From contig MKVL01000033.1 in NCBI GenBank assembly GCA_001899205.1, positions 1 through 45,803 of the forward strand: a stretch of DNA of 45,803 bases, given 5' to 3'. Position 1 is the first letter of the stretch; each line of letters begins with the position of its first letter. This document shows, one piece after another, positions 4,791 to 18,470 of this stretch. The position numbers and the translations under genes are program-made. The notes under the pieces are model-generated. The model made no database searches. It saw only the letters and a list, made by a program, of their open reading frames with translations, and was not told the DNA's origin. Origin of the DNA: Mesorhizobium sp. 65-26 (GTDB lineage Bacteria > Pseudomonadota > Alphaproteobacteria > Rhizobiales > Rhizobiaceae).

Positions 4791-5728
4791 GCATCGTCGA
4801 CCTCGTCCTGGATACAGGCTTCTTCGCGGCGGCGGTTCGCCTTGCCATCCCGCTGCTGTTCGGGACGCTGAGCGAGCTTACGGCGGAGCGCTCCGGCGTC
4901 CTCAATCTCGGCATCGAGGGCATGATGCTGTCCGGCGCGCTCGCCGGTTTCGGCACCGCCTCCGCCACCGGCTCGCTGTGGCTCGGCGTACTCGCGGCGA
5001 TCGCGATCGGCATGACGATCGGCGCCGTCATGGCGGTGCTGGTGGTGAACCTTCGTCTCGACCAGACAGTGACCGGGCTCGGCGTCAGCCTGGCGGCCAC
5101 GGGGCTCGTCTTCTACAGCTACCGGCTGGGCTTCGGCGAAAGCAGCACGCCGCCCTCTATCACGCCCTTCAGCACCATCCCGTTGCCGTTCCTGTCGGAC
5201 ATTCCGGTGATCGGCCAGGTATTCTTCAACCAGTACGCGCTGACCTATGTCGCCTATCTGCTGGTGCCGGCGCTGGCCTTCTTCCTCTACCGGACGCCGG
5301 CCGGGCTTTCCCTGCGCACCGTCGGCGAGAACCCGCAGGCGGCGGCGGCGGCCGGCATCGATCCGATCCGGGCGCGCATCCTGGCGCTGGTCGTCGCCGG
5401 CGGCCTTGCCGGGCTCGCGGGCGCCTATCTCAACCTTGCCGCCTTCGGTTCCTTCACCTTCGGCATCGTCTCGGGGCGCGGCTGGATCTGCCTGGCGCTC
5501 GTCGTGCTTGGCCGCTGGAACCCGATCGCCTGCGCGGCGGCGGCGGTGCTGTTCGGCGCCGTCGATGCTTTCCAGTTGCGCCTGCAGGCAAGCGGCGCGG
5601 TCGACCTGCCCTACCAGCTCTTCCTGGCGCTACCCTATGCCGCGACGCTCGTGGCGATGATCCTCAACGCCAAGCGCGCCGTCGGCCCCGCGGCGCTGAT
5701 GCAGCCCTACGACGCCGAGCACCGATAG
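4787..5728 (+). CDS. ABC transporter permease 2 (BPD_transp_2 family)
   Basis: This is the second membrane subunit, 313 residues, with the family motif LNLGIEGMM near residue 40 and VGENPQAAAAAGID near residue 180, matching the loop in permease 1. The frame is open much further upstream, but that part overlaps permease 1 and has no membrane character. The GTG at 4787 overlaps the upstream stop by four bases, has AGGG seven bases before it, and gives the usual family length with an N-terminal hydrophobic segment. This is the last gene of the importer operon. It converges on the minus-strand block ending at 5795, 66 bases away, with no clear terminator hairpin between them. Confidence 0.92.
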   Translation: MSIVDLVLDTGFFAAAVRLAIPLLFGTLSELTAERSGVLNLGIEGMMLSGALAGFGTASATGSLWLGVLAAIAIGMTIGAVMAVLVVNLRLDQTVTGLGVSLAATGLVFYSYRLGFGESSTPPSITPFSTIPLPFLSDIPVIGQVFFNQYALTYVAYLLVPALAFFLYRTPAGLSLRTVGENPQAAAAAGIDPIRARILALVVAGGLAGLAGAYLNLAAFGSFTFGIVSGRGWICLALVVLGRWNPIACAAAAVLFGAVDAFQLRLQASGAVDLPYQLFLALPYAATLVAMILNAKRAVGPAALMQPYDAEHR

Positions 5729-5794: not shown

Positions 5795-6286
5795 TCAATC
5801 CAGGAAATCAGCGTCGCTCTTGTCCGCTAGATAGCCGGCCAGCGCGCGCGACGCCTCGGCCTTCACGGCCGCGGCGATCCAGTGGGAGAACATCTCGTCG
5901 TCGCGTGGCTCGAGCCCGGCGCAGGCCACCACGATGCCCTCCAGCACGGCACTGCCCGAATAGACCGTGTCGCCGGCAAGCAGGTGATGCGCGGCAAGTG
6001 CTGCGGTCGGCAGTCCGGTCCGCGCCGACATCTCCGCCTTCTTCAGCGCGATCTCCATGTTGGGGTAGGGAGAACGCGACAGATCGCCGATCGAGGTCAC
6101 CAGGTGGCAGCGCTCTCGGAAATGCGCCGCATCCTTGCCAGGCGCCGGGTCGATCGCCGGCGTCGCCGCCACCACGATCGCGCAGCCGGCACGGTCCGGC
6201 ATCGCCTGGCGCATCATCAGTTCCAGCGCCGGCCGGATCTTGTCGAAGGCGCGTCGCGCCAGGGTCTCGTTCAGGATCGATGCCAT
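5795..6286 (-). CDS. small GlcG/HbpS-like protein of the 13-gene catabolic block
   Basis: The 163-residue protein is not confidently recognised. The C-terminal half (KAEMSARTGLPTA, then YSGSAVLEGIVVACAGLEP and a helix with MFSHWIAAAVKAEA) resembles the GlcG/HbpS (DUF336) fold. In that fold a KA..A..TG.PT helix precedes a G-rich strand pair and a final helix. It lacks a signal peptide, so it should be cytoplasmic, unlike the secreted relative at 20800. The ATG at 6286 has a GGGAGGC-like ribosome site; the frame stays open upstream only as a shadow of the neighbour. It is the last gene of the block, 11 bases after the GGT-like gene. GlcG-like proteins often end catabolic operons without a settled role. 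Confidence 0.75.
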   Translation of the reverse strand: MASILNETLARRAFDKIRPALELMMRQAMPDRAGCAIVVAATPAIDPAPGKDAAHFRERCHLVTSIGDLSRSPYPNMEIALKKAEMSARTGLPTAALAAHHLLAGDTVYSGSAVLEGIVVACAGLEPRDDEMFSHWIAAAVKAEASRALAGYLADKSDADFLD

Positions 6287-6297
6287 TCTTGCCTCCC

Positions 6298-7770
6298 TCA
6301 GACGATGCCGGCCCAGGTGGTGCGGCGCCAGTCGGCGCAGGCGATCGGTGCGCCGTCGACGATGCCGGCTGCAGTCACCGCGCCGGCGCGCATGTCGCCA
6401 TCCGGCATCTCGACCACGTCGTGACCAAGCCCCGCCAGCTCCGCCTTGTGGGGGTGGCTCTTCTCGACCAGCAGCTTGCCGTTCTCGCTGCGCCAGCGCG
6501 GACGGTCGATCGCCTTGGCAAGGTCGACCTTCTCGATCGCCAGGCCGCTGATCACCTGGAGCAGCGTCTGCACCTGGCCGTCGGCGCCAGGCGTCGACAG
6601 CGCGAGCGGGCCGCGCGGCGTCTCGAGGATCGCCGGCGCCAGCGTATGGACGGGCCGCTTGCCGGGGGCCGCGTCGTTGGGCGCGGCGGTGAAGCCGCCG
6701 GCGCGGTTGTTGAGGGTAAAGCCGCATTCGGGAACGAACACGCCTGAGCCGAAATCGTCGAAAACGCTGACCAGAGAGGAGATGCAGCAGCCATGGCGAT
6801 CGGCGACGGAGACGCCGGCGGTGTGGAGATAGGCGCGTGGGCCGCCGCGGTTCGACGCCCTGTCGAGGTCGAGCGTCAGAGGCTCCGACAAGAGGCGTTC
6901 GCCCTCGGCGATGCGGTCGCGGAAGGCGAAGCTGGCCTCCGTCAGCTCAATGCCGGCATGGTCGATCCTGTTGCGCGGGATGTCGCCCAGCGCCGACAGC
7001 GCCTTGGCCGACATGGCCAGCAGCAGGCCCTGTGAGATCGGCGGCTGCACCATCAGCCGCATGCCCCTGAACTCGACGGCGACCGGATCGTCGACGACGG
7101 TGCGGTGCGCCTGCAGGTCCTCCATGGCCAGTGCCCCGCCATGCGCCCGCACGGCCCGGACGATGGCCTCGGCGCAAACGCCGGAATAGAAGGCGTGGTC
7201 GCCCTCCTTGCCGATGCGGTCCAGCGTCATGGCAAGCTCTTCCTGGACGACGAGGTCGCCCGCCGACGCCGAAAGCAGGACCCACTCCGCCGCGCCGTTG
7301 CGCTCCAGCCTGCCGCGATGCTTCTGCACGGCGGCGGCCAGCGAGGGTGGCACTTGCATCTTCAGCCGCGCCAGCCTTATCGCTGGCTGCAGCACCAGAT
7401 GCAGCGGCAGCCGGCCATAGTCGTCGAGCACCGCGCACCAGGCACCGACCATGCCGGGCACCGTCACGCTGGCGCCGCCATCGTCGGAGACGGACTTGAG
7501 CTTGCCGGGCGCCGCGCCCGTGCCGTTGAAGGCGCGGGTGCGCCCGCCGGGCTCCCGCACCAGGCACAGCATGTCGCCGCCAAGGCCGCAGGCCTGCGGC
7601 GCTACAACGGCCAGCACGGCCTGCGCCGCCACCAGCGCGTCGGCCGCACTGCCGCCGGCGGTGAGGATTTCCTGCGCCGCCGCCGCCGCGAACGGGTCGG
7701 CCGCCGCAACGGCGCCGCCGCGCCCGATCAGTACCGGTCTTTCCCTCGATGCGAAAGCATCGGCAAGCAT
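6298..7770 (-). CDS. gamma-glutamyltransferase-family protein (Ntn hydrolase)
   Basis: The 490-residue protein is GGT-like. The N-terminal part has AQEILTAGGSAADALVAAQ and ACGLGGDM. A region near residues 341-356 (GSGVFVPECGFTLNNR) matches the small-subunit core. In the known family the precursor cleaves itself before a threonine, which becomes the nucleophile in a TTH.SV.D motif. Here that place reads TAGVSVAD, keeping the threonine (residue 317) but replacing the next Thr-His. No signal peptide is seen, whereas classical GGTs are periplasmic, so an intracellular hydrolase of a gamma-glutamyl or related amide is likely. The start at 7770 has GGAGG five bases upstream. An earlier ATG at 7794 overlaps the SDR stop (ATGA) and is an alternative. 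The protein is shorter than typical GGT (about 530-580 residues). Confidence 0.88.
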   Translation of the reverse strand: MLADAFASRERPVLIGRGGAVAAADPFAAAAAQEILTAGGSAADALVAAQAVLAVVAPQACGLGGDMLCLVREPGGRTRAFNGTGAAPGKLKSVSDDGGASVTVPGMVGAWCAVLDDYGRLPLHLVLQPAIRLARLKMQVPPSLAAAVQKHRGRLERNGAAEWVLLSASAGDLVVQEELAMTLDRIGKEGDHAFYSGVCAEAIVRAVRAHGGALAMEDLQAHRTVVDDPVAVEFRGMRLMVQPPISQGLLLAMSAKALSALGDIPRNRIDHAGIELTEASFAFRDRIAEGERLLSEPLTLDLDRASNRGGPRAYLHTAGVSVADRHGCCISSLVSVFDDFGSGVFVPECGFTLNNRAGGFTAAPNDAAPGKRPVHTLAPAILETPRGPLALSTPGADGQVQTLLQVISGLAIEKVDLAKAIDRPRWRSENGKLLVEKSHPHKAELAGLGHDVVEMPDGDMRAGAVTAAGIVDGAPIACADWRRTTWAGIV

Positions 7771-7790
7771 TGTGTCCTCCCAAGGTCTCG

Positions 7791-8534
7791 TCATACCGCT
7801 GTGTATCCCCCATCGACGACGATCGACGTGCCGGTCACGTAGCGCGAAGCCGGCGAAGCCAGGAACAGAACCGTTCCCGCGACATCCTCCGGCACGCCCT
7901 GCCGGCGCATCGGTATCTGCCGCAGCAACTCCCGCTCGGCCGCGGCCGGGTCGGCCTGGAACGACCAGAAGGAGCTGTTGAACGGCGTGTCGATCCAGCC
8001 CGGCAGCAGGCAGTTGACCCGGGTGCCCTGCGCGGCGAGTTCGTCGGCAAGCGCGCGGCAGAGCCCGAGCAGCCCCGATTTCGTCGCGTGATAGGCGGGC
8101 ATGCCGGCATGTCCGCGCAGCGCGCCGGTCGAGGCGGTGAAGATGATGCTGCCATTGTTCGAGCGCGCCAGGGCCGGCGCCGCCGCCTGGGCAAGAAAGA
8201 AGGGGCTCGACAGGTTCAGCGCGAGCGACCTGTTCCAGCGCTGCGGAGTCCAATCCTGCAGCGGAGCCGATTCCAGGATCGCCGCATTGGCGAAGACGCA
8301 GTCCAGCCCGCCGAAAGCGTCCAGCGCGGCTTCGACAGCCACGCGCGGTCCGTCATCGGTGGAAAGATCGCAGGCGAAGGCGCGCGCCTCGCCCTTGCCC
8401 GGCTCCGCCGCCACCTGCGCGGCGCGCGCGCCGTCAATGTCGGCGAGCAGCACGCTGTCGCCTTGCGCGCGGAAAGCGCGCAGCGCCGCGAGGCCGATGC
8501 CGGACGATCCGCCCGCGATCAGAACGACACCCAT
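7791..8534 (-). CDS. SDR-family oxidoreductase 1
   Basis: The 247-residue classical short-chain dehydrogenase has the cofactor motif GGSSGIG (residues 8-14), NAA near 83, and catalytic Ser135, Tyr148 and Lys152 (YHATK). An acidic residue after the second strand (ADID) suggests NAD preference. The length is normal and the C-terminus ends in the family's VDGGYTAV. It starts three bases after the M20 gene stop and lies within 20 bases of the GGT-like gene. It probably oxidises or reduces a hydroxyl or keto group in the pathway of this block; the exact substrate cannot be read from sequence. It is a distant paralogue of the SDR at 9776. Confidence 0.9.
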   Translation of the reverse strand: MGVVLIAGGSSGIGLAALRAFRAQGDSVLLADIDGARAAQVAAEPGKGEARAFACDLSTDDGPRVAVEAALDAFGGLDCVFANAAILESAPLQDWTPQRWNRSLALNLSSPFFLAQAAAPALARSNNGSIIFTASTGALRGHAGMPAYHATKSGLLGLCRALADELAAQGTRVNCLLPGWIDTPFNSSFWSFQADPAAAERELLRQIPMRRQGVPEDVAGTVLFLASPASRYVTGTSIVVDGGYTAV

Positions 8535-8537
8535 CGA

Positions 8538-9776
8538 TCACTCCTTCGGATGGTGGCTGGAGAGGGCGCAGAGACCGAGCGCGGCGGTCATGTAGACGGC
8601 CACGCAATCCACCACGTCGTCCTCGAAAACATGGTCGTCGATGCCGGAGGCGAGTTCCGCCTGCGGCCCGTAGCAGATCGCCGGAATGCCCCTTGCGCGC
8701 CAGCGGGCGGCGTCGCTGGCCGGCAGCCGCACAACCGGCAGGGCCGGCCTGCCGCGCACGCCCTCGCTGGCGGCGAGCATGGCCTGGCTGAGCGGATGGT
8801 CGATGGCCGTCCAGTTGGGGTTCCAGCCCTTGATGCGTCGCACCGCGATGCCGCCGATACGCGCGGCCTCGGCCGTCAGCCGCGCTTCCACGGCTTCGAT
8901 GGTGAGGCCTGGCGGCACGCGGAAATCGATCTCGGCGCCGGCGCGGGTGGCGACCTGGCTGACGAAGCCGTCGGCGCGAAGGGTCCCGACGTTCGCCGAA
9001 AGCCTCAACCCATGCTCGCCGGCACCTTGCGCAAGGCGCGCCATGGCGGCGGGCGGAGCCACCTGCTCCTCGTTCCAGGCATCGATCGCGCCGATGAATT
9101 TCGCCAGCCGCGCCGTGGCGGAGGTGCCGGCACCGGTCAGCATGCCCTGGCCACCGGGCGCCGAAGCCTCGACCTCGACCCAGAGCAGGCCCTTCTCGGC
9201 GACCGCGACGTTCATGTGCCCAGGCCCCTCTGCGTTGATCAGCAGGTCGCCGGCGAGATCCGGTTCCCGGTCGAGCAGATAGGCGGCGCCGTCCGGGCCG
9301 AACACGACCTCGTCGGCGACGAGGGTGAGCGTGACCCGGCCACGCAGCCTGGAGCGCAATCCGTGCAGTCCGGTGAAGGCCATGGCGAGCGCCGCCACGC
9401 CAGCCTTCATGTTGCCGATGCCGAGGCCGGTCAGCCGCCCGTCGCGGCGGCCCATTTCGAAGATGGGCACCGACCAGGCGCTGGCGTCGCCGGGATTCAG
9501 CGTATCGAGATGTCCGTTGAGGACGAGATGCGGGCCGGGTTCCGCGCCCTCGAAGGAACATACCAGATTGGGCTTGCCGGGCGTGGCGGCGACGATCCGC
9601 GCCTGCAGGCCGGTTTCCCTGAGGAAGGCGCTTAGCACCCCCGCGGGCGCGGTGGTGTCGCCCACCGGCTGCGGGCTGCGCGCCGCGACCAACCGCGCGC
9701 AGAGGTCGACCAGGCGCTCGCGCCCGGCCTGCGCGAAATGCCTCGCGGCCTCGATGTCCCCTCCGGCCAGGATCAT
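8538..9776 (-). CDS. M20-family peptidase/deacylase with altered metal site
   Basis: The 412-residue M20 (ArgE/DapE/CPG2-type) hydrolase family normally uses two zinc ions to cleave amide bonds of N-acyl amino acids. The first motif NGHLDT (His89, Asp91) is intact. The usual bridging-Asp motif G.G..DMK.G reads GIGNMKAG, with Asn122 in place of Asp. The DEE motif reads ADEVV: the general base Glu156 is kept but the next metal ligand is Val157. Glu183 and the C-terminal His382 (DDHVFED) are present. It may use one metal, bind metal differently, or have drifted in function. The start is ATG at 9776, overlapping the upstream SDR stop by one base (TGATG). The long upstream extension of the frame is a shadow of the SDR. 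It is the likely amide-splitting enzyme of this block. Confidence 0.88.
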   Translation of the reverse strand: MILAGGDIEAARHFAQAGRERLVDLCARLVAARSPQPVGDTTAPAGVLSAFLRETGLQARIVAATPGKPNLVCSFEGAEPGPHLVLNGHLDTLNPGDASAWSVPIFEMGRRDGRLTGLGIGNMKAGVAALAMAFTGLHGLRSRLRGRVTLTLVADEVVFGPDGAAYLLDREPDLAGDLLINAEGPGHMNVAVAEKGLLWVEVEASAPGGQGMLTGAGTSATARLAKFIGAIDAWNEEQVAPPAAMARLAQGAGEHGLRLSANVGTLRADGFVSQVATRAGAEIDFRVPPGLTIEAVEARLTAEAARIGGIAVRRIKGWNPNWTAIDHPLSQAMLAASEGVRGRPALPVVRLPASDAARWRARGIPAICYGPQAELASGIDDHVFEDDVVDCVAVYMTAALGLCALSSHHPKE

Positions 9777-10573
9777 CAGCCGACCTGCCAACCGCCGTCG
9801 ATGACCAGCGACTGGCCGACGACGTAGCGCGCCAGCTCGGACGCCAGGTAGACATAGGCGCCGGCCAGTTCCTCCAGCGGGCCGAGCCTGCCGACCGGAA
9901 TGCGCGCCTCGAAGGCGCTTCGCAGGGCTTCCGCGCTGGTGCCTTGCAGCACGGCGCGTTCGCTGAACAGCGACTGGATCATCTGGGTGTCGATCTGCCC
10001 GGGGCAGACGCAATTGACCAGGATTCCCTTCTCCGCCAGCTCCGCCGCGAGACTCTGCATCAGGCCGATCATGCCGAACTTGGATGCCGAATAGGCGCTG
10101 TTCTCGCGTCCACCGCGCACGCCGAACAGCGACGCGGTGAAGATGATGCGGCCGGGCGTGCCGGCCGCCACCATGCGCCGCGCGAACGAGGTCGCGGTGA
10201 TGAAGGCGCCGGTCAGGTTCACGTCGAGCACCCGGCGCCAGGTCGCGAGGTCGGTGTCGATGCCGTGCTTCAGCACGAGGATGCCGGCGTTGGGGACCAC
10301 GATGTCGACGCCGCCGTTCGAGAACAGCCTGTCGGCAAGCGCCTCGGTGGCGTCGAGGTCCGTCACGTTGAGGGCGACGAGCTCGGCCCGCCCCGGCGCC
10401 AGCGCCTCCAGGCGCCCCCGCGCCGCCTCCAGCGAGCGGGCGTCGATGTCGGCGGCGACAACCCTGGCGCCTTGCCGCAGGAAAGCTTCCGCCACGGCCA
10501 GTCCGATGCCCTGGGCGCCGCCGGTGATGAACGCGGTCTTGCCCGCGAGCAGGGAATTGCCGTGATCTTCCAT
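9776..10573 (-). CDS. SDR-family oxidoreductase 2
   Basis: The 265-residue classical short-chain dehydrogenase has GGAQGIG (residues 18-24), ADID after strand two (NAD type), NAG near 95, and catalytic Ser148, Tyr161 and Lys165 (YSASK). The C-terminus is VIDGGWQVG. The ATG is preceded by GGAGACAGGAA, a good ribosome site. It sits 14 bases after the ammonia-lyase gene and is coupled to the M20 gene. Having two SDRs within one operon suggests two redox steps or two stereoisomers of one hydroxy or keto intermediate. The substrate is not inferable. Confidence 0.92.
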   Translation of the reverse strand: MEDHGNSLLAGKTAFITGGAQGIGLAVAEAFLRQGARVVAADIDARSLEAARGRLEALAPGRAELVALNVTDLDATEALADRLFSNGGVDIVVPNAGILVLKHGIDTDLATWRRVLDVNLTGAFITATSFARRMVAAGTPGRIIFTASLFGVRGGRENSAYSASKFGMIGLMQSLAAELAEKGILVNCVCPGQIDTQMIQSLFSERAVLQGTSAEALRSAFEARIPVGRLGPLEELAGAYVYLASELARYVVGQSLVIDGGWQVG

Positions 10574-10587
10574 TTCCTGTCTCCTTC

Positions 10588-11805
10588 TCAGGCTGCCACG
10601 CTCTCGGAGGCGCGGCCGACGATGCGCTGGTAGGCATCCTCGTCGGTCGCTCCCTCGCTGCCGATGGTCACGATGCGCGATTGCGGTCCGATGCCCAGCG
10701 CCGCGCGCAGTTGCGGATCGAGCGCCGCCGCGATCAGGCCGGCCACGGCGGCGCAGCCGGATTCGCCGGCGACGATCGCCGGGTCGCCGGCAACGCCCTC
10801 GGCCAGCACCCGCATTGCCTCGGGAGCAGCCTCCTCGGGCAGCGCGATGACGCTGTCGATGGCGTGCTGCAGGATGACCCAGGCCGGCGCCGAAACCTCG
10901 CCCGCCGCCAGGCAGGCCATCACCGTGTTGGTGTCCCCGGGCACCGGCGTCGGCCGGCCCGCGGCTATGCTGCGGAAGACGCAGTCCGCCCGCTGCGGCT
11001 CGACCACGACGATGTTCGGGCGCTCGGCGCCGAGCAGGTCCCAGTAATGGGCCGCGACCGCCGCCGCGAGGCCGCCGACGCCGGCCTGGACGAACACATG
11101 CGTCGGCCTTTGCGCGCCCAGCTGGGCGAGGATCTCGTCAGCGATGATTGTGTAGCCCTGCATGATCAGGGACGGGACATGGGCGTCCGCCTCGCCTGAC
11201 GTGTCGCCGGCGAGGTGCCAGCCGTTGGCGGCCGAATCCGCCGCGCAGGCCTGGACCGAGTCGTCATAGTGCCCCTTGACGCGCACGATGCGGGCGTCGA
11301 AGCGCGCGATCTCGCGCTCCCGGGCAAGGCTGACATGCTCGTGCAGGTAGATGATGCACTGGCAGCCGAACATCTGGGCGCCCCAGGCGACCGAACGGCC
11401 ATGATTGCCGTCCGTAGCCGCCGCGACGATGACCTTCTCGATCAGCGCACGGTGCTTGCCGGCGATCAGGTCGGCGGCGGTCACGTGCTCGATTACCCCC
11501 TGGGCTGCCAGGTATTCCTGCAGGATCGCCAGCACCGCGTAGGCGCCGCCGATGGCCTTGAAGCTCTTCAGCCCCAGGCGTTGCCCCTCGTCCTTGTAGA
11601 ATATCTCGCCGACGCCAAGCTGGCGCGCCAGGCCCGTGAGCTCCACGAGCGGGGTCTTCTCATAGCCAGGCCAGGACGAGATCTCGGCATGGGCCTTGCG
11701 GAAGCCCTCCCGGCTCAGAACGCGTCGCTCGCACTCGCCATAGGGACGAGAACGGTCTGAGTGGGCATTTTGAACGGCCCGTGCGACGAAGCGCTTGAGT
11801 TCCAT
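10588..11805 (-). CDS. dpaL: diaminopropionate ammonia-lyase
   Basis: This 405-residue fold-type II PLP enzyme is of the DAPAL/YgeX group. The PLP lysine lies in GLKSFKAIGGAYAV (Lys83 by this start). A glycine-rich phosphate loop is seen in VQAGVGGLAAAVAAHY. The C-terminal GSEGATDED is typical of the group. The known reaction converts 2,3-diaminopropionate to pyruvate and two ammonia; relatives act on other beta-substituted alanines. Two start codons are possible. The ATG at 11814 lies only one base after GGAGG, so 11805 (nine bases after it) is preferred. It follows the binding-protein gene by 58 bases. It is the key clue that the imported compound yields a beta-amino-substituted alanine. 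Confidence 0.88.
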   Translation of the reverse strand: MELKRFVARAVQNAHSDRSRPYGECERRVLSREGFRKAHAEISSWPGYEKTPLVELTGLARQLGVGEIFYKDEGQRLGLKSFKAIGGAYAVLAILQEYLAAQGVIEHVTAADLIAGKHRALIEKVIVAAATDGNHGRSVAWGAQMFGCQCIIYLHEHVSLAREREIARFDARIVRVKGHYDDSVQACAADSAANGWHLAGDTSGEADAHVPSLIMQGYTIIADEILAQLGAQRPTHVFVQAGVGGLAAAVAAHYWDLLGAERPNIVVVEPQRADCVFRSIAAGRPTPVPGDTNTVMACLAAGEVSAPAWVILQHAIDSVIALPEEAAPEAMRVLAEGVAGDPAIVAGESGCAAVAGLIAAALDPQLRAALGIGPQSRIVTIGSEGATDEDAYQRIVGRASESVAA

Positions 11806-11863
11806 GAATTTCATTCCTCCGAAAAATGGGCCGGGCAGGTCGATGCCCGGCCCCGGGTCTCGA

Positions 11864-12685
11864 TTACTTTCGCTTCGCCAGTTCCTCGAACCACTTGTCG
11901 CGCAACTTGACGTTCTCGCCGGTGCGCACGACGTCGCGGATGAAGGTGTTGAGGAAGTTCAGGAAATGCTGGTCGCCGGGCCGGATCGCGTAGGCGAGGC
12001 CGACCGGCTTCACCAGCGCGTCCTCGCCGTTGAGGACGTTGATGCGCTTGGCGAGCGCCGGGCTGCGCAACTGCAGGAGCTTCAGCGTGCCGGGATCGAT
12101 GAAGGCGGCGTCGGCCTGGCCGGATGCCACCTCGCCGATCCATGCGGCGATGTCATTGGTCACCACGCCGCGCACGTTCGCCTGCGGGTAGAGCTCCTTC
12201 GGGTAGCTTTCCTCGACGGTGCCGCTTTCGCCGACGAAGGTCACCTTGGAAGAGTTGAGCGCGTCGAGCGAGGTCGGGCCCGACTTGGCGTTGGCGACGA
12301 TGTGGAAGCCATAGGTGAAGTACGGCTCGGTGAAGTCGACGACGACCGCCCGCTCCGGCGTCGCGAAGAGGTTGGCGAACACGGCGTCGTACTGGCTGGC
12401 CTGCAGTCCCGGGATGATCGTCGCCCAGCTGGCGGGCACGATCTCGAGGCGTACGCCAAGGACCTTCGCCACCTGCTGGGCGAGGTCGACGTTGAAACCC
12501 TCATACTGGCCACTGGTCGGGTTCGGCGACTGCCATGGCGGGCTTTCGGCCATGCCGACGCGGAACACGCCACGGTCCTTGATTTCCTGGAGAAGGTCGG
12601 CCGCGAAGGACGGTGCGGCGGCCAGTGCGACGACAAGCGCCAGAAGAAGCTTTGCCAGTCCAAATCTGCATATCAGTGTTTTCAT
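11864..12685 (-). CDS. polar amino acid ABC transporter substrate-binding protein
   Basis: The 273-residue SBP_bac_3 family protein has a clear Sec signal peptide (hydrophobic stretch then PSFAA, cleavage near residue 25). The mature part begins with DRGVFRVGMAESPPW. It has GFNVDLAQQVAK, then DAVFANLFATPERA, a binding-site region where Arg and Asp commonly hold the alpha-amino acid group. The start at 12685 has AAGGGG upstream; a start eleven codons earlier would place charged residues before the signal. It works with the two permeases encoded just upstream. No ABC ATPase of this class is in the window, so one must be supplied from elsewhere or shared. This protein decides which amino-acid-like compound the block takes up. 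Confidence 0.92.
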   Translation of the reverse strand: MKTLICRFGLAKLLLALVVALAAAPSFAADLLQEIKDRGVFRVGMAESPPWQSPNPTSGQYEGFNVDLAQQVAKVLGVRLEIVPASWATIIPGLQASQYDAVFANLFATPERAVVVDFTEPYFTYGFHIVANAKSGPTSLDALNSSKVTFVGESGTVEESYPKELYPQANVRGVVTNDIAAWIGEVASGQADAAFIDPGTLKLLQLRSPALAKRINVLNGEDALVKPVGLAYAIRPGDQHFLNFLNTFIRDVVRTGENVKLRDKWFEELAKRK

Positions 12686-12728
12686 TTTTTCATTCCCCTT
12701 TGGTTGGTTCGTTGGCACGGGACGCGGA

Positions 12729-13445
12729 TCAGGCCGCTCCCCGTGGAAGTTTCAGCCGGCTGAAGAAGCTGGCCTTCGCAACGCGTGGGAGCGCATTGCG
12801 GTCACCCAATCGGTGTTCGAGCCGACGGGCATAGAGCGTTACCGGGAAGATCAGGGCGAAGTAGATGATGGCGATCGCCGACAGGAACGAGATGTACTGG
12901 TAGGTCTTGCCGCCGAGCAGGTAGGCCTGCAGCGACAGGTCCATGACGCCGATGGCCGACAGCAGGGTCGTGTTCTTGAGGAACTCGGAGAAGTAGTTGA
13001 CCAGCGGCGCGATCACGAGGCGCAGCGCCTGCGGCAGGATCACCAGCGTCCATTTCGGAAAGGCCCTGAGCCCCAGCGACTCCGCCGCTTCCCGCTGGCC
13101 CTTCGGCACCGCCTCGATGCCGGCGCGGAAGATCTCCGCCAGATAGGCCGCGGCGATCAGCCCGAGCACCACCGAGCCGGCCCAGAAGCCGGACACGCTG
13201 GCGTCGAAGATCAGCGGGATGCAGTAATAGGCCCAGAAGATAAGGATCACTTCCGGCGTTATGCGGAAGAACAGGATGTAGCCGCGCGCCATGCCGCGCA
13301 GCAGCCGCAGCCGGCCGATGCGCAGCGCGCAGATCGCGCTGCCGAAGACGATGCCGATGATGGCGCCGACCAGCGCGATTGCCAGCGTGACCTTGACGCC
13401 GTCGAACAGCGCGTCGCTGTTGCGCAGGACGAGTTCAAAGTCCAT
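12729..13445 (-). CDS. amino acid ABC transporter permease 2 (HisM/GlnP family)
   Basis: The 238-residue membrane protein has about five transmembrane helices and the family's conserved loop (EAAESLGLRAFPKWTLVILPQALR), which docks the ATPase. The ATG at 13445 is chosen because GGGGGA stands six bases upstream and the membrane part starts just after it. It overlaps the preceding permease gene by 11 bases. It would pair with that permease as a heterodimer in the inner membrane. It is followed, 43 bases on, by the binding protein. Confidence 0.92.
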   Translation of the reverse strand: MDFELVLRNSDALFDGVKVTLAIALVGAIIGIVFGSAICALRIGRLRLLRGMARGYILFFRITPEVILIFWAYYCIPLIFDASVSGFWAGSVVLGLIAAAYLAEIFRAGIEAVPKGQREAAESLGLRAFPKWTLVILPQALRLVIAPLVNYFSEFLKNTTLLSAIGVMDLSLQAYLLGGKTYQYISFLSAIAIIYFALIFPVTLYARRLEHRLGDRNALPRVAKASFFSRLKLPRGAA

Positions 13446-14130
13446 GGGCGGTCCCCCGCTTGAGGGCACGCTCGGCATAGTAGCCGGCCGTGCTGATGAC
13501 TGCGCCCACCACGAAGGCGAGCATGGCCGCGGTGGTGTAGATCTCGACCGGCTGGAAGGTGAAGGTGGAGAGCCTGCTTGCCGTCCTGAGCAGGTCGTCT
13601 ATGGCCAGGATCGACAGGATGGTGGTGGCCTTGAAGATGCTGATGATGGTGCCGACCAGCGGCGGCAGCATCAGGCGGATCGCCTGCGGCAGGATCACCT
13701 TGCGCCAGGTGGCGTAGGGGCGCATGCCCAGCGCCCGCGCCGCCTCGAACTGGCCCTTGCCGACCCCGAGGATGCCGCCCCGGATGATCTCGCTGCAATA
13801 GGCGGCGACGTTGAAGATCAGGGCGATGGAAGCACTCTGGAACGGCGAGGTGGCGATGCCGGTGAGCCCGGGCACGGCGAAATGCACCCAGATCGCCTGG
13901 ACGAGCAGGGGTGTCGACCGCCAGAACTCGACGAAGGCGAGCGCCGGCCAGCGGATGATGCGATGCGAGGAGAGATTGGCCAGCGCCAGGGTGGTGCCGA
14001 CGACGATGCCGCCGCACAGGAAGCCAATGGCGGTCAGCAGGACGTTGATGAGCAGCCCGCCAAGCAGCACCGGGAGGTAGGTCCACGCGACCGAGAAATC
14101 CAGCGACTGTAGGAAGGCGTAGTCGATCAT
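13435..14130 (-). CDS. amino acid ABC transporter permease 1 (HisQ family)
   Basis: The 231-residue membrane protein has the HisMQ-type signature EAARALGMRPYATWRKVILP and about five transmembrane helices (first at residues 15-40). The ATG at 14130 gives the family length. The frame extends upstream only into the VOC gene region and has no membrane character there. The ribosome site is weak. It forms an importer with the next permease and the binding protein at 11864. It lies 53 bases after the VOC gene, same strand. Confidence 0.9.
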   Translation of the reverse strand: MIDYAFLQSLDFSVAWTYLPVLLGGLLINVLLTAIGFLCGGIVVGTTLALANLSSHRIIRWPALAFVEFWRSTPLLVQAIWVHFAVPGLTGIATSPFQSASIALIFNVAAYCSEIIRGGILGVGKGQFEAARALGMRPYATWRKVILPQAIRLMLPPLVGTIISIFKATTILSILAIDDLLRTASRLSTFTFQPVEIYTTAAMLAFVVGAVISTAGYYAERALKRGTAHGL

Positions 14131-14183
14131 CGACGCTGCTCGACCGGTTGACCTGGGACGCGCATCATGGCCGCTCGCTCCCT

Positions 14184-14717
14184 TCAGCGTCCGGGAAAGC
14201 CGGGATGCCACAGCCGCCGGGCCGGCGAATCCGCCTCACCCTTGCCGGCCGGATAGCTGACCAGCTCGAACTGCATGCCCCAGGGCGAAAGGAAGTAGAC
14301 CCAGAGCGAGCCTTTAGCCGGGCCGGAGTCGATCCGCTGGATCTCGCCCTGCACGGTCACGCCCTCGGCGCGCAGATGCGCCACCGCCGCCTCGATGTCG
14401 TCGACATAGAAGGCGATGTGGTGGCCGCCTATGTCGCTGTTGCGCGGCGGCTCCGGAGACTGTTGCGGCGCCGAATACTCGAAGACCTCGAAGTTCGGGC
14501 CGTTCGCGCAACGCACGAAACCCCAGCGGAAGCTGGAACGGCGGTCGACGCCGATCTGCCGTTCCATGAAGTCGGGATCGGAATAGACGCCGCCGTCGAG
14601 GATGAATTCGCAGCCGATGACGCGCACGAAGAAATCGATCGCGGCATCGAAGTCGGGCACTGTGATGCCGACATGCTCGGCGCCCCGCAGTCCTGGCAGT
14701 CCGCCGGATTTGCCCAT
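14184..14717 (-). CDS. VOC-superfamily (glyoxalase/dioxygenase fold) protein
   Basis: The 177-residue protein has two beta-alpha-beta-beta-beta modules of the vicinal oxygen chelate fold. The first starts AEHVGITVPDFDAAIDFF and the second GGHHIAFYVDDIEAAVAHL. Candidate metal ligands are His15, a His in GGHH and the Glu of MQFELVSY. Family members include glyoxalase I, epimerases and extradiol dioxygenases, so the reaction cannot be named. It sits two bases after the acoC stop, which ties the aco genes to the importer genes. It might handle an aldehyde or a methylmalonyl-like intermediate, by inference only. Confidence 0.88.
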   Translation of the reverse strand: MGKSGGLPGLRGAEHVGITVPDFDAAIDFFVRVIGCEFILDGGVYSDPDFMERQIGVDRRSSFRWGFVRCANGPNFEVFEYSAPQQSPEPPRNSDIGGHHIAFYVDDIEAAVAHLRAEGVTVQGEIQRIDSGPAKGSLWVYFLSPWGMQFELVSYPAGKGEADSPARRLWHPGFPGR

Positions 14718-14719
14718 GG

Positions 14720-15856
14720 TCAGCGGTCCGCGCCGGCGAGATGGGCGGCAAGCATACGGTTGACGGCCGCCGCTGCTTCCATCATCGGCATGTGGCCGGC
14801 GTCGGCCACACGCTCGACCTTTATGTTAGCCGGCAAGCCGTCGGCCTGGGCGGCGGGGATGACGCGGTCCTTCTCGCCCCAGACGGCCAGCACCGGCGCC
14901 TGCGTCGCCGCCAGCGCGTCGCGCAGGTCGATCGCCTGCCTGCCGCCGCTCGCCAGGTTGCGCGCGATGGCGCCGAGCGCTTCCGGAACGCCATCCAGCC
15001 GCTTGAAGCGCAGCACGTTCTCCACCATCTCGGCGCTCATCGCATCCGGGTCGGCGAAGAGCCTGGAAAGCACTTCCTTCATCGGCTTGCGCCGGTCGGC
15101 GGCGAGGAAGCCGTCGATGTAGTCGCTCGATATCTCCCCGCCGAGGCCGGCGGGCGCCAGCAGGCCGAGCGAGGCGACCCGGTCGGGCGCCGAGGCCGCG
15201 ACCGACAGTGCCACGGCTCCGCCGAGCGAATGGCCGACGAGATGCGCCCTGGCGATGCCCAGCGCGTCCAGCGCCGCGACCACCGCCTCGGCGAGCTCGT
15301 CCAGCTTGCCGGACGGTACCGTCGGCGCCGAACCGCCATGGGCGGGCAGGTCGAGGACGTGGACCGGCCGGTCCTTGGCGAGCGCGTCCTGCGTGAACAG
15401 CCAGGTCCCGCCGTCGCCGCCGAAACCGTGGATCAGCACCACCGGCGTGGCGTCGCCGTCACCTATGCTCAGCACGTTCAGCTGGTGCGGGCCAGCCTCG
15501 ACGACGCGCGGCGTCGGGTAGGCATCGGCATCGTCGCCGGCTGCTCCCGCCCGTTCGGCATAGCCCGCCACGAAGGCATCGACCTCGCTGTCGGGAACAC
15601 TCGTCTCGGCGACGACCGCCAGCAGCGCCCCAACCGGGGCGGTCGCGCCCTCCTCGACCACGATGCGGCGCAGCAGGCCGCTGACGTGCCCCTCGACCAC
15701 GTTGGTGATCTTTTCGGTCTCGACTTCCATGATCTCCTGGCCGGTGGCGATGCGTTCGCCTTCCTTGACCAGCCAGGCGGAGAGGCGGCCCTCGGTCATG
15801 GTCATGCCCCACTTAGGCATGGTGATCGGCTGCAGTTGCGCGTCCATCGTCGTCAT
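14720..15856 (-). CDS. acoC: AcoC-type lipoyl-domain/alpha-beta hydrolase fusion (E2)
   Basis: The 378-residue fusion begins with a lipoyl domain (residues 8-82) carrying the lipoylation lysine Lys49 in ETEKIT. An alpha/beta hydrolase domain follows, with nucleophile Ser210 (GHSLGG), Asp330 and His355. This layout is typical of AcoC, the acyltransferase of acetoin dehydrogenase, which passes an acetyl group to CoA. The ATG at 15856 overlaps the acoB stop (ATGA). A second ATG three codons on (15847) is better spaced from CAGGAA and may be used. The E3 (dihydrolipoamide dehydrogenase) gene is not nearby, so that subunit would be shared with other complexes. Confidence 0.9.
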   Translation of the reverse strand: MTTMDAQLQPITMPKWGMTMTEGRLSAWLVKEGERIATGQEIMEVETEKITNVVEGHVSGLLRRIVVEEGATAPVGALLAVVAETSVPDSEVDAFVAGYAERAGAAGDDADAYPTPRVVEAGPHQLNVLSIGDGDATPVVLIHGFGGDGGTWLFTQDALAKDRPVHVLDLPAHGGSAPTVPSGKLDELAEAVVAALDALGIARAHLVGHSLGGAVALSVAASAPDRVASLGLLAPAGLGGEISSDYIDGFLAADRRKPMKEVLSRLFADPDAMSAEMVENVLRFKRLDGVPEALGAIARNLASGGRQAIDLRDALAATQAPVLAVWGEKDRVIPAAQADGLPANIKVERVADAGHMPMMEAAAAVNRMLAAHLAGADR

Positions 15857-16866
15857 TTCCTGTAGGCCATGGTCTTGCGGACGGCTTCGGCGATGCGCTT
15901 GGCATCCGGCAGGTAAGCCGCCTCGAGATTGGGGGCGTAAGGCACCGGCGTGTGCGGCGCGGTCACCTTCATGATCGGCGCCTTCAGCGCGCCGAAGGCG
16001 TTCTCGGCGATGATCGAGGAGATGTCGGCGGCCATGCCGCAACGCGGATTGGCCTCGTCGACGATGACCACCCGGCCCGTCTCCTCCGCCGTTTCGAGGA
16101 TGGTGTCCTCGTCCAGCGGCGAGGTGGTCCTCGGGTCGACGACCGTGCAGTCGATGCCCTCCGCCGCGAGGATGGCGGTGGCCTCCTGCGCGAAATGCAC
16201 CATGCGCCCGAAGGCGATGATGGTGGCGTCGCCGCCCTCGCGCAGCACGTTGGCTTCGCCGAACGGTATGGCATAGGCGCCGTCCGGAACCTCGCCGACC
16301 GTGTCGTAGAGCAGCTTGTTCTCGAGGAAGATGACCGGGTCGTTGTCGCGGATCGCCTGGATCAGCAGGCCCTTGGCGTCATAGGGGCTCGACGGGATCA
16401 CCACCTTCAGGCCCGGCACATGGGTGAAGATAGGGTAGAGCGCCTGGCTGTGCTGGCTGGCCGAGCGGGTGCCCGCGCCATAGGTGGCGCGCAGCACGAA
16501 GGGCGTCACCGCCTTGCCGCCGAACATGTAGCGGAACTTGGCGGCCTGGTTGAAGATTTGGTCGAAGCAGACGCCGAGGAAGTCGACGAACATGATCTCG
16601 GCCACCGGGCGCAGGCCGGTGACGGCGGCGCCAGCCGCCGCGCCGACGAAGGCGCTTTCGGAGATCGGCGTGTCGCGCACGCGCAGCGGCCCGAAGGCGC
16701 CGAGCAGGCCCTTGGTGACGCCGAAGGCGCCGCCCCAGGCATCCTGCTGGCCGGACGCGCCGGCGCCGCCGGCGATGTCCTCGCCGAGCACGATCACCGT
16801 CGGATCGCGGCCCATTTCGTGGTGAAGCGCCTCGTTGAGGGCCTGGCGGAAGGATTTTTGCGGCAT
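15853..16866 (-). CDS. acoB: TPP-dependent acetoin dehydrogenase-type E1 beta
   Basis: The 337-residue transketolase-like pyrimidine domain plus C-terminal domain is typical of E1 beta subunits. Visible features are EDIAGGAG near residue 30, the DTPISESAFVGAAAGAA region and DPRTTSPLDEDTI in the C-terminal half. Together with AcoA it binds TPP at the subunit interface and decarboxylates or cleaves a 2-oxo acid or acetoin. It begins 11 bases after the acoA stop and overlaps acoC. Substrate assignment to acetoin comes from the AcoC fusion partner. A branched 2-oxo acid, or another acyloin from this pathway, is also possible. Confidence 0.92.
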   Translation of the reverse strand: MPQKSFRQALNEALHHEMGRDPTVIVLGEDIAGGAGASGQQDAWGGAFGVTKGLLGAFGPLRVRDTPISESAFVGAAAGAAVTGLRPVAEIMFVDFLGVCFDQIFNQAAKFRYMFGGKAVTPFVLRATYGAGTRSASQHSQALYPIFTHVPGLKVVIPSSPYDAKGLLIQAIRDNDPVIFLENKLLYDTVGEVPDGAYAIPFGEANVLREGGDATIIAFGRMVHFAQEATAILAAEGIDCTVVDPRTTSPLDEDTILETAEETGRVVIVDEANPRCGMAADISSIIAENAFGALKAPIMKVTAPHTPVPYAPNLEAAYLPDAKRIAEAVRKTMAYRK

Positions 16867-16877
16867 GTCTTTCTCGC

Positions 16878-17855
16878 TCAGGGATAACGGACGTAGACGT
16901 CGGTGGTGAGGCTATCGAGCGGCGGCTGGGGCGCGGCCCTGGCGGCCTTGACGGCGCTGTCGATCACGGCCTGGACCTCGGCGTCGACCGCGTCGAGATC
17001 GCTCTCGGCCAGCAGCTTCGCCTCGCCGACGCGGCGACGGAAGGTGGTCAGGCAGTCGCGGTCGCGGCGCATCGCCGCCTTCTCCTCGGCGGTGCGGTAA
17101 TTGTCGGGGTCGCCGCTGAAATGGCCGTAGTAGCGCGGCGTCTCGATGTGCAGCAGCGTCGGTCCCTCGCCGCGGCGCGCCCGCGCCACCGCTTCGGCGG
17201 CGGCGTCGTGCACGGCGAAGAAATCGACCCCGTCGACCTTGGCGAAGGCCATGCCCAACGCGTCGGCGCGCTTGACGATCTCGCCGGCGACGACGAAGGA
17301 GCTCGCCGTCGCCTCGCCGAAGCCGTTGTCCTCGACGGCGAAGATCACCGGCAGTTTCCAGACCTGGGCGAGGTTCATGCTCTCGGCCGTGGTGCCCTGG
17401 TTGATGGCGCCGTCGCCGGAAAAGACGACAGCCACGTCGTCGCGGCCGAGCACCTGCGCGGTCATCGCCGCGCCGCAGGCCAGCGGCGGACCGCCGCCGA
17501 CGATGCCGTTGGCGCCGAGCATGCCCTTGGAGAGGTCGGCGATGTGCATCGAGCCGCCCTTGCCGCGGCAGATGCCGGTGTCCTTGCCGAAGATCTCGGC
17601 CATCATGCCGTGCACGTCGCATCCCTTGGCGATGCAGTGCCCATGGCCGCGATGCGTGGAGGCAATGTTGTCGCTCTGGACGAGATTCATGCACACGCCC
17701 ACCGCCGAGGCTTCCTGCCCGGCGTAGAGGTGGGTGTTGCCCGGAATGTCGCCGCTCGCCATCTCGGCGCTGACGCGATCCTCGAAGACGCGTATCGTCC
17801 GCATCATGCGGTACGCCTCCAGCAGCTTTTCACGTGAAAGTTGCATTCCGGTCAT
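16878..17855 (-). CDS. acoA: TPP-dependent acetoin dehydrogenase-type E1 alpha
   Basis: The 325-residue E1 alpha subunit has the TPP motif GDGAINQG (147-154) through EDNGFG (175-180), and HRGHGH near residue 68. The ATG at 17855 is preceded by CGGAG at six bases. A GTG at 17876 is in frame, but it would put this ribosome site inside the gene. This is the first gene of the minus-strand block. It diverges from the Lrp-type regulator, and the spacer between them carries a perfect inverted repeat. The block would therefore be transcribed from just upstream of here. Confidence 0.93.
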   Translation of the reverse strand: MTGMQLSREKLLEAYRMMRTIRVFEDRVSAEMASGDIPGNTHLYAGQEASAVGVCMNLVQSDNIASTHRGHGHCIAKGCDVHGMMAEIFGKDTGICRGKGGSMHIADLSKGMLGANGIVGGGPPLACGAAMTAQVLGRDDVAVVFSGDGAINQGTTAESMNLAQVWKLPVIFAVEDNGFGEATASSFVVAGEIVKRADALGMAFAKVDGVDFFAVHDAAAEAVARARRGEGPTLLHIETPRYYGHFSGDPDNYRTAEEKAAMRRDRDCLTTFRRRVGEAKLLAESDLDAVDAEVQAVIDSAVKAARAAPQPPLDSLTTDVYVRYP

Positions 17856-17939
17856 ATCGAACTCCGGTACGGCCACAGGATGGGCATCTGGATTGAAGGC
17901 GGCTAGCAGGCCTACGATAGAAGGCAGGTCGCGCGTGAA

Positions 17940-17968
17940 TTTATCAAACGCGCGTCATTTGTGATAAA
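17940..17968. promoter_or_regulatory. inverted repeat, candidate Lrp-type operator
   Basis: TTTATCA (17940-17946) and TGATAAA (17962-17968) form a perfect 7-base inverted repeat around a 15-base spacer. They sit in the 156-base gap between acoA and the divergent Lrp-type gene. A second repeat follows, GATTC (17969-17973) and GAATC (17980-17984). The half-sites are AT-rich in a GC-rich region, which suits Lrp/AsnC operators. Binding by the neighbouring regulator is inferred. Confidence 0.55.
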
Positions 17969-18011
17969 GATTCGCAAAAGAATCGGGAACACGCAAAAAA
18001 GGAGCGTCGCC

Positions 18012-18470
18012 TTGCTCGACAGTTTCGATATCAAACTTCTCAACCTGGTGCAGACGGACACGCGGCGCACCGCCCAGGAGTTGTCCGAGGCGGTCGGCCT
18101 GTCACCATCGGCCTGCCTGCGCCGCCTCAACCGGTTGCGCGAGACCGGCGTCATCGAGGCCGAGATCGCCGTGGTCTCGCCGGCGGCGGTCGGACACCGG
18201 CTGACCATGGTCGTGGAAGTGTCGCTGGAACGCGAACGGCCCGACATCATGAGCGACTTCAAGAAGGCGATGCGCATGACGCCCGAAGTCATCCAGTGCT
18301 ACTATGTGACCGGCGAAGTCGACTTCATCCTCATCGTCGCGGTCAAGAGCATGAGCGACTACGAGACCTTCACCAACGACTTTCTCTTCAACAACAAGAA
18401 CATCAAGCGCTTCAACACTCTGGTCGTCATGGACCGGGTCAAGGTGAGCCTGGCGGTGCCCATCGAGTGA
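18012..18470 (+). CDS. Lrp/AsnC-family transcriptional regulator
   Basis: The 152-residue protein has the N-terminal winged helix (TAQELSEAVGLSPSACLRRLNRLRETGVI, residues about 17-45) and the C-terminal ligand-binding AsnC domain with YYVTGEVDFIL. The start is TTG at 18012, with GGAG seven bases upstream; this gives the usual Lrp length. The longer ATG form at 17961 would add an unrelated basic tail and would read through the inverted repeat. It is divergent from the thirteen-gene block and is its likely regulator. Lrp-type proteins usually respond to an amino acid, which fits the amino-acid importer and ammonia-lyase. Confidence 0.92.
   Translation: MLDSFDIKLLNLVQTDTRRTAQELSEAVGLSPSACLRRLNRLRETGVIEAEIAVVSPAAVGHRLTMVVEVSLERERPDIMSDFKKAMRMTPEVIQCYYVTGEVDFILIVAVKSMSDYETFTNDFLFNNKNIKRFNTLVVMDRVKVSLAVPIE

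What the first reader, a model, noticed from the sequence alone, without database searches (positions are those of the whole stretch)
5795..18470. Thirteen-gene catabolic block with divergent Lrp regulator: an apparently unassigned pathway
Seen: thirteen same-strand genes from acoA (17855) down to the GlcG-like gene (5795), with gaps of at most 58 bases and several overlaps. They encode a TPP/lipoyl complex, a VOC protein, an amino-acid importer without its ATPase, a diaminopropionate ammonia-lyase, two SDRs, an M20 hydrolase and a GGT-like hydrolase. Known: the parts act on amino-acid amides, beta-substituted alanines and acyloins or 2-oxo acids. Inferred: together they could import and split a conjugated amino acid, lyse it to pyruvate and ammonia, and turn the side-chain into acyl-CoA. 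I know of no described pathway with this gene set.
Basis: partly seen in the sequence, partly recalled or inferred. Interest (0 to 1): 0.72.

Follow-up and report, generated by a model that had tools for sequence, protein, structure and literature searches.

The report
Widespread catabolic gene cluster, substrate unknown
Thirteen neighbouring genes look like one import-and-digest pathway for an unidentified nitrogen-containing compound; related gene sets recur in very different bacteria, where one key enzyme is sometimes swapped for a chemically different one.

Summary
In detail: thirteen minus-strand genes (17855-5795), largest gap 53 bases, divergent Lrp gene. Scanning 84,980 species genomes with the block's M20 protein gave 38 loci, 37 of them at 40-77% identity. 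With loci from other searches, those with enough flank show three layouts. (A) mostly Rhizobiales: acoABC, VOC and SDR1 in 11 of 11 (window included), GGT-like 10, dpaL 9. (B) Actinobacteria, 11 loci: GGT-like, dpaL and SDR2 in 9 each, SDR1 in 10, and either acoB (6) or a Baeyer-Villiger-type monooxygenase (5), never both. (C) dpaL and GGT-like without aco or SDR genes. The swap suggests cleavage beside a ketone made by the SDRs. In 35 of 35 aligned M20 proteins Asn replaces the bridging-metal Asp and Val, Thr or Cys the next Glu, as in 5-nitroanthranilate aminohydrolase. The GGT-like protein keeps its nucleophile but not the gamma-glutamyl-binding residues; DpaL keeps its catalytic residues. 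Best reading: one pathway releasing 2,3-diaminopropionate or another beta-substituted alanine, plus a hydroxylated remainder cleaved to acyl-CoA. Substrate unknown; my literature searches found no description.

The parts
16878..17855 (-). acoA-like E1 alpha of a TPP-dependent 2-oxo-acid/acyloin dehydrogenase complex
   Evidence: PF00676 E 6e-78; in 11 of 11 type-A loci
15853..16866 (-). acoB-like E1 beta
   Evidence: PF02779/PF02780; the 11 type-A acoB are one clade apart from 7 own-genome paralogs and one from G247
14720..15856 (-). acoC-like E2: lipoyl domain plus alpha/beta-hydrolase domain
   Evidence: NF011457 468.8 bits, cut-off 307; ATGA overlap with acoB
14184..14717 (-). VOC/glyoxalase-fold protein, next to acoC
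   Evidence: PF13669/PF00903; 11 of 11 type-A loci
13435..14130 (-). amino-acid-type ABC permease 1
   Evidence: PF00528, TIGR01726
12729..13445 (-). amino-acid-type ABC permease 2
   Evidence: PF00528, TIGR01726
11864..12685 (-). family-3 solute-binding protein
   Evidence: PF00497 E 1e-31
11828..11853 (-). GC-rich hairpin after the SBP stop codon, terminator-like or mRNA 3' stabiliser
   Evidence: 10-pair stem; a stem at the same place in 8 of 8 type-A loci with this SBP; z -3.6 here, -0.9 to -4.7 over the seven folded with shuffles
10588..11814 (-). diaminopropionate ammonia-lyase (PLP)
   Evidence: NF006058 456.8 bits, cut-off 276; PLP Lys and both catalytic Asp kept
9776..10573 (-). SDR1, short-chain dehydrogenase
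   Evidence: PF13561; 11 of 11 type-A and 10 of 11 type-B loci
8538..9776 (-). M20-family protein with altered metal site (N122, V157) and Q210 for the dimer-domain His
   Evidence: PF01546 E 1e-18; residues
7791..8534 (-). SDR2, short-chain dehydrogenase
   Evidence: PF13561; 9 of 11 type-B, 5 of 11 type-A loci
6298..7794 (-). GGT-like N-terminal-nucleophile hydrolase; no signal peptide evident by eye (not tested)
   Evidence: PF01019 E 4e-82; Thr nucleophile aligned, gamma-glutamyl-binding residues replaced
5795..6286 (-).
   Evidence: no Pfam hit at E 1; relatives in L093, L094, L097
17961..18470 (+). divergent Lrp/AsnC-family regulator
   Evidence: PF01037/PF13404; divergent relative at 83-89% identity in L093, L095, L096, L097, so in 5 of 11 type-A loci

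Best explanation
A single catabolic pathway. (1) The SBP and two permeases import an amino-acid-like compound, the ATPase being supplied by another locus (inferred). (2) The GGT-like Ntn hydrolase and the M20 enzyme, probably with one metal, cut C-N bonds and release 2,3-diaminopropionate or another beta-substituted alanine plus a hydroxylated carbon piece (inferred from families and residues). (3) DpaL turns the amino acid into pyruvate and ammonia (activity inferred; catalytic residues shown). (4) SDR1, helped by SDR2 or, in some relatives, a GMC oxidoreductase, oxidises hydroxyl groups to a ketone or hydroxyketone (inferred). (5) AcoABC cleaves next to the ketone to give an acyl-CoA and an aldehyde; in some Actinobacteria a Baeyer-Villiger-type monooxygenase does this step instead (the mutual exclusion is shown, the chemistry inferred). 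Lrp probably controls the block in Rhizobiales and GntR in Actinobacteria (from position only).
For: Recurrent gene content in three layouts and in a further type-A locus found by profile, L150. acoB or BVMO-type, never both and never neither, in 11 type-B loci with at least 8 kb on both sides: p 0.002, or 0.018 with near copies collapsed to 8 (a post hoc test without phylogenetic correction). DpaL Lys and the Asp120 and Asp189 equivalents kept in 29 of 29 cluster rows, two of them repeats. Published M20-plus-DpaL pair: YgeY and YgeX turn albizziin into pyruvate (PMC12507026, section 8 read).
Against: dpaL is not linked in L073 and L074 (a dpaL of the type-A clade sits elsewhere in those genomes) nor within 19.9 kb in L150. 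GGT is missing in L036; GGT, dpaL and SDR2 in L119 and L121; in L103 dpaL is the only core gene beside M20; L115 lacks SDR1 and acoA hits. SDR2 and GMC are not clean substitutes: L094, L097 and L098 have both, L095, L096 and L150 neither. Type-B dpaL and acoB are not the nearest relatives of the type-A ones: dpaL outside clusters in the host's order and E1-beta paralogs of the host are as close or closer, so the set was not inherited as one unit. Type C lacks aco and SDR genes. No expression or enzyme data.
Confidence: 0.6

Rival explanations
1. Two separate modules side by side: a hydroxyketone/diol module (acoABC, VOC, SDRs) and an amino-acid-amide module (importer, DpaL, M20, GGT-like), under shared control but without a shared substrate.
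For: Type C has M20, GGT-like and dpaL without aco or SDR; L119 and L121 have SDR1, acoAB and M20 without dpaL or GGT; terminator-like hairpin between SBP and dpaL.
Against: Genes of the two modules are interleaved and re-ordered but stay together in two phyla; SDR1 lies between dpaL and M20 in 9 of 11 type-A loci; where acoB is absent in type B a BVMO-type gene is present.
Confidence: 0.2
2. An aerobic ureide route like the last steps of reductive urate breakdown: M20 removes a carbamoyl group from a ureido-diaminopropionate and DpaL makes pyruvate.
For: YgeY plus YgeX do this to albizziin (PMC12507026); an NCS1-type permease (family of cytosine, purine, thiamine and allantoin carriers) in 5 of 11 type-B loci; a HyuA-like gene near the cluster in L073, L074, L103 and L150.
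Against: M20 is not YgeY: 57 bits against cut-off 321, 22% identity, different metal-site residues. No ssnA, ygfK or xdhD among the block's genes. Does not explain SDRs and AcoABC.
Confidence: 0.1
3. An acetoin/2,3-butanediol operon that has picked up unrelated neighbours.
For: acoC passes the acetoin dehydrogenase E2 model; SDR2 matches the meso-2,3-butanediol dehydrogenase model, below its cut-off.
Against: SDR1 and M20 recur with the aco genes in 11 of 11 type-A loci, GGT in 10 and dpaL in 9; an amino-acid-type importer; the acoB clade is distinct.
Confidence: 0.07

Closest known systems
Reductive urate pathway ygeW-ygeX-ygeY-hyuA-ssnA-ygfK-xdhD (E. coli, Clostridium)
   Same: An M20-family hydrolase next to a diaminopropionate ammonia-lyase, ending in pyruvate and ammonia (abstract and sections 8 and 9 of PMC12507026 read; E. 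coli locus seen).
   Different: M20 here is only 22% identical to YgeY and lacks the second-metal ligands; none of the upstream urate genes; adds GGT-like, SDRs, AcoABC, VOC.
Acetoin dehydrogenase operons acoABC
   Same: Same E1 alpha, E1 beta and lipoyl/alpha-beta-hydrolase E2 families.
   Different: Lrp regulator; fixed partners of another kind; in 5 of 11 type-B loci a BVMO-type gene is found instead.
5-Nitroanthranilic acid aminohydrolase NaaA (PDB 5k8m/5k8p)
   Same: M20 family; Asn at the bridging position, Ile at the second Glu, base Glu kept (alignment).
   Different: Only 67 bits for the profile; substrate of the present enzyme unknown; NaaA's single metal and chemistry are recalled, not read.
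GGT-family amidohydrolases without gamma-glutamyl specificity (2nlz, 2i3o; HpxW, recalled as 5hft)
   Same: Best solved relatives are 2nlz and 2i3o, ahead of E. coli GGT.
   Different: A clade of its own in a recurrent neighbourhood; substrate not known.

Membership tests
Diaminopropionate ammonia-lyase (DpaL/YgeX) | Passes a curated family model | tested here: met
   NF006058 456.8 bits vs 276; TIGR01747 274.8 vs 274; but TIGR03528 307.5 below 532.25
Diaminopropionate ammonia-lyase (DpaL/YgeX) | PLP Lys and the two catalytic Asp (E. coli D120, D189; roles recalled) | tested here: met
   Aligned; kept in 29 of 29 cluster rows
Diaminopropionate ammonia-lyase (DpaL/YgeX) | Activity on D/L-diaminopropionate | not testable with these tools
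   Type A lacks the DT-A/S-W/Y-x-G-Y motif of YgeX, which types B and C keep except L129, so specificity may differ
Di-metal M20 peptidase/deacylase (DapE, ArgE, YgeY) | Bridging Asp and second-metal Glu | tested here: not met
   N122 and V/T/C157 in 35 of 35 rows against D and E in DapE, ArgE, YgeY
Single-metal M20 of the NaaA type | Asn for Asp, hydrophobic residue for second Glu, base Glu kept | tested here: met
   4 of 35 rows have Thr and one Cys rather than Val at the second Glu; metal content and activity not testable
Gamma-glutamyltransferase | Thr nucleophile at start of small chain | tested here: met
   Thr 323 of window:6298-7788 falls on residue 1 of chain 2dbu_B by extending the printed ranges; Thr aligned with Thr in 2nlz
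Gamma-glutamyltransferase | Curated cut-off and gamma-glutamyl-binding residues | tested here: not met
   TIGR00066 220.8 vs 357.85; NNQMDDF to NNRAGGF and PLSSM to PVHTL (roles recalled)
Acetoin dehydrogenase complex | AcoC-type E2 model | tested here: met
   NF011457 468.8 vs 307
Acetoin dehydrogenase complex | Acts on acetoin | not testable with these tools
   E1 alpha is below its best model's cut-off (320.2 vs 393.85); E1 beta passes only a subfamily model
Reductive urate gene cluster | ssnA with ygfK/uacX and xdhD/xdhA next to ygeX and ygeY | tested here: not met
   None among the 13 genes and the divergent regulator

The most novel reading that the evidence does not exclude
The cluster is an undescribed aerobic catabolic route, spread over Pseudomonadota and Actinomycetota, for a common environmental molecule in which an alanine is bound through its beta carbon or an enamine-type nitrogen to a polyhydroxylated, possibly cyclic, carbon skeleton (mycosporine-like sunscreens would be one such class). 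Its M20 enzyme would be a single-metal C-N hydrolase acting by the unusual chemistry of 5-nitroanthranilate aminohydrolase, and its ring or chain would be opened by either a TPP/lipoyl complex or a Baeyer-Villiger-type enzyme.
Probability: 0.12. Interest if true: 0.85.

Novelty: new variant of a known kind. Interest (0 to 1): 0.6.

Why it matters
A rare but phylogenetically wide gene set (two bacterial phyla) points to a natural compound whose breakdown has, as far as my searches reach, no assigned pathway. It defines a clade of M20 proteins with a remodelled metal site and a GGT-like clade without the gamma-glutamyl-binding residues, both tied to the same partners, which makes the substrate question directly testable by induction and growth screens in a few cultured strains.

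Tried and rejected
Gamma-glutamyl conjugates: rejected, binding residues replaced. Plain acetoin catabolism: unlikely. Chloramphenicol-type substrate, prompted by the GMC gene in some relatives: of PMC9590159 only passages were seen; CapO is a GMC enzyme, but acetoin, thiamine, amidohydrolase and ammonia-lyase have no hits there; dropped. Ephedrine-type amino alcohols: search listing only; no link. Beta-oxalyl-diaminopropionate: search listing only; it would not explain SDRs and AcoABC. Mycosporine catabolism: one unrelated paper in the listing; kept only as the novel case. PMC8407117: two passages seen, a list of genes tied to nodule competitiveness that includes a diaminopropionate ammonia-lyase; no link to this cluster shown. 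A search with the term M20 was useless. Common operator between acoA and Lrp: five intergenic regions aligned and looked at by eye only, nothing clear. Plasmid carriage: no match for the GGT-like protein in 72,556 plasmid records at E 1e-60. Base composition of the block does not clearly stand out from its surroundings. PADLOC gave nothing for M20 and GGT. Structure prediction was off, so the metal site rests on sequence alignment alone.

Limits: the named-genome scan used the patterns GLG[VIM]GNMK and VADE[TV]VFG, so the Asn and, for some loci, the residue after the base Glu were selected for. Independent of those patterns are the window, L036, L039, L073 and L074 (found through dpaL or VOC) and L150 (found by profile), all six with Asn. 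Of 17 more distant M20 matches I fetched nine: all nine have Asp at that position and eight of nine the canonical DEE; L155 has DEG. L095 and L096 are near copies, as are L112 and L117, and L119 and L121. The BVMO-type gene of L109 is only 38% identical to that of L112. Counts use loci with at least 8 kb (type B), 5 kb (type A) or 4 and 6 kb (type C) beside M20; L103 (Sphingomonas) is left out of type B; genes elsewhere in those genomes were not looked for. My gene caller fails in some loci, so counts use tblastn with identity thresholds that I chose.
Full report
What is there. The block is real and compact: thirteen minus-strand genes between 17855 and 5795, gaps of at most 53 bases, four overlaps, and a divergent Lrp gene 105 bases from acoA. 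Families: E1 alpha, E1 beta and a lipoyl/alpha-beta-hydrolase E2 that passes the acetoin dehydrogenase model, a VOC protein, two amino-acid-type permeases with a family-3 binding protein, a diaminopropionate ammonia-lyase above its model cut-off, two SDRs, an M20 protein, a GGT-like protein and a 163-residue protein without any Pfam hit.

Relatives. In 297 genomes of the order, 28 had a dpaL at E 1e-100 or better, and none of the 7 others of the host's genus in that sample. I fetched 20 kb around six of them and the host's second dpaL: two, G037 and G095, carry acoABC-VOC, SDR1 and M20 beside dpaL with other orientations, the other four and the host's second copy do not. A VOC profile search of 397 genomes gave 39 with a match at E 1e-40; five score above 300 bits, and these are the host, G037, G095 and two further clusters in G106 and G070; weaker matches that I fetched lie in other neighbourhoods. 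A scan of the named genome collection with the M20 alignment gave 38 loci. With window and extra proteins as tblastn queries they fall into three layouts. Type A: mostly Rhizobiales, such as Mesorhizobium denitrificans, Aestuariivirga, Methylobrevis albus and Prosthecomicrobium hirschii, with one truncated locus from a MAG labelled Gammaproteobacteria (L116). Type B: Actinobacteria such as Micromonospora, Mycolicibacterium, Arthrobacter and Amnibacterium. Type C: Rhodoplanes, Bradyrhizobium, Afipia, Burkholderia and Paracoccus. Counts: type A, 11 loci with the window: aco and VOC 11, SDR1 11, GGT 10, dpaL 9, GMC 7, SDR2 5. Type B, 11 loci: SDR1 10, GGT 9, dpaL 9, SDR2 9, HbpS/GlcG-type 8, acoB 6, BVMO-type 5. 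Type C, 7 loci: a D-glutamate-cyclase-family protein 7, another GGT 6, dpaL 5. A later type-A locus, L150, has acoABC, VOC, SDR1, M20 and GGT but no dpaL in 19.9 kb.

Rarity. In the host's genus only the host has the clade's M20: 4 of 146 genomes matched at E 1e-60, and the other three are distant M20 proteins with the canonical Asp and Glu. The GGT-like clade occurs in 3 of 297 family genomes. In a class sample of 385 genomes 14 matched at E 1e-70, but only two, the host included, at clade level. The cluster is an accessory trait that has probably moved horizontally (inference).

The swap. In 11 type-B loci with at least 8 kb on both sides, six carry acoB (five also acoA) and five a flavin monooxygenase of the Baeyer-Villiger type (FMO-like PF00743; best NCBIfam hit a pentalenolactone D synthase, far below its cut-off; one member tested). 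None has both and none has neither. With near copies collapsed to 8 the probability is 0.018; the test is post hoc. Both kinds of enzyme can cut beside a ketone (recalled enzymology), so the SDRs most likely make a ketone that these enzymes cleave. A metallo-beta-lactamase-fold protein resembling lactonases occurs in 6 of 11 type-B loci, in both sub-types.

Inheritance. Window M20, GGT, SDR1 and SDR2 match type-B proteins at medians of 47, 53, 51 and 58%, dpaL at 37 and acoB at 43%. dpaL outside clusters in the host's order lies closer to type A than type-B dpaL does, and E1-beta paralogs of the host reach 52%. So dpaL and acoAB may have been recruited separately to the same task; my set lacks actinobacterial dpaL from outside clusters, so this is not proven.

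Enzyme details. In 35 of 35 aligned clade M20 proteins the HxD motif, base Glu and the third Glu are kept, but the bridging Asp is Asn and the second-metal Glu is Val, Thr or Cys; all 11 type-A rows also have Gln for the dimer-domain His that all 24 other rows keep (L100 stands for L039; L074 and L150 are not in this alignment). E. coli DapE, ArgE and YgeY are canonical. NaaA shows the same Asn and a hydrophobic residue at the second Glu; its unusual chemistry is recalled, not read. Retrieval bias and the unbiased controls are given under Tried and rejected. The GGT-like protein keeps the Thr nucleophile but replaces the residues that hold the gamma-glutamyl group. DpaL keeps Lys and both Asp, but type A lacks the DT-A/S-W/Y-x-G-Y motif of the E. 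coli enzyme; several dpaL outside such clusters (L010, L011, L015, L017-L019, L024, L033) and L129 of type C lack it too, so this does not mark the cluster.

Transcription. A hairpin follows the SBP stop codon in all 8 type-A loci with this SBP, with largely different stem sequences; in the seven folded with shuffles z ranges from -0.9 to -4.7, two of the seven being weak (-0.9, -1.7). Only in the window is it followed by a T run. The count of terminator-like sites in the region is no higher than in shuffles. An mRNA stabiliser that favours the binding-protein message is the likelier reading, but a partial terminator is possible. The divergent Lrp gene is found in 5 of 11 type-A loci.

Literature. 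My searches for the lyase name alone (22 papers), with Rhizobium, with acetoin dehydrogenase and GGT, and for three of six cluster terms showed no description in the listings; the library holds open-licence papers only. The nearest described M20-plus-DpaL pair is YgeY and YgeX in reductive urate breakdown (PMC12507026: abstract and sections 8 and 9 read; commentary PMC12990295: first of two parts read).

Verdict. One conserved catabolic unit with unidentified substrate. The shape of the pathway (import, two C-N hydrolases, DpaL, ketone formation and ketone cleavage) is likely; the compound and the intermediates are open.

Noticed in passing
G000 (own genome), loci L135-L141 and others: The host genome has 12 further E1-beta genes at 38-52% identity to acoB.
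   Followed up: partly
L095 and L096 after GGT; L102, L105, L128: A TauE/SafE-type permease (PF01925 shown for the L096 copy; the F31 family of L102, L105 and L128 named from its sequence only) adjoins the cluster in both phyla; it might export an anion released by the pathway.
   Followed up: no
L039, L073, L074: These type-A clusters add a GMC oxidoreductase with a small partner, an HpaB-type hydroxylase, a polysaccharide-deacetylase-family protein, an epimerase, a fused permease-ATPase and an XRE-cupin-like regulator; L073 and L074 also a RidA protein and a HyuA-like protein (regulator and HyuA named from sequence only).
   Followed up: partly
L036:47-1060: A short Rieske oxygenase alpha-subunit-like gene lies just upstream of acoA in G037.
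   Followed up: no
window 8772-8841 +: ARAGORN calls a tRNA-Ile inside the M20 gene on the other strand; probably a false call.
   Followed up: no
window 2179-5728 +: An ABC importer (ATPase and two permeases) next to the block, resembling the putative B6 ABC transporter models but below their cut-offs; not looked for in relatives.
   Followed up: no
L042 (G000:C10): A second dpaL (50% identity) with its own divergent Lrp gene in the host genome, without the cluster's other genes within 20 kb.
   Followed up: no
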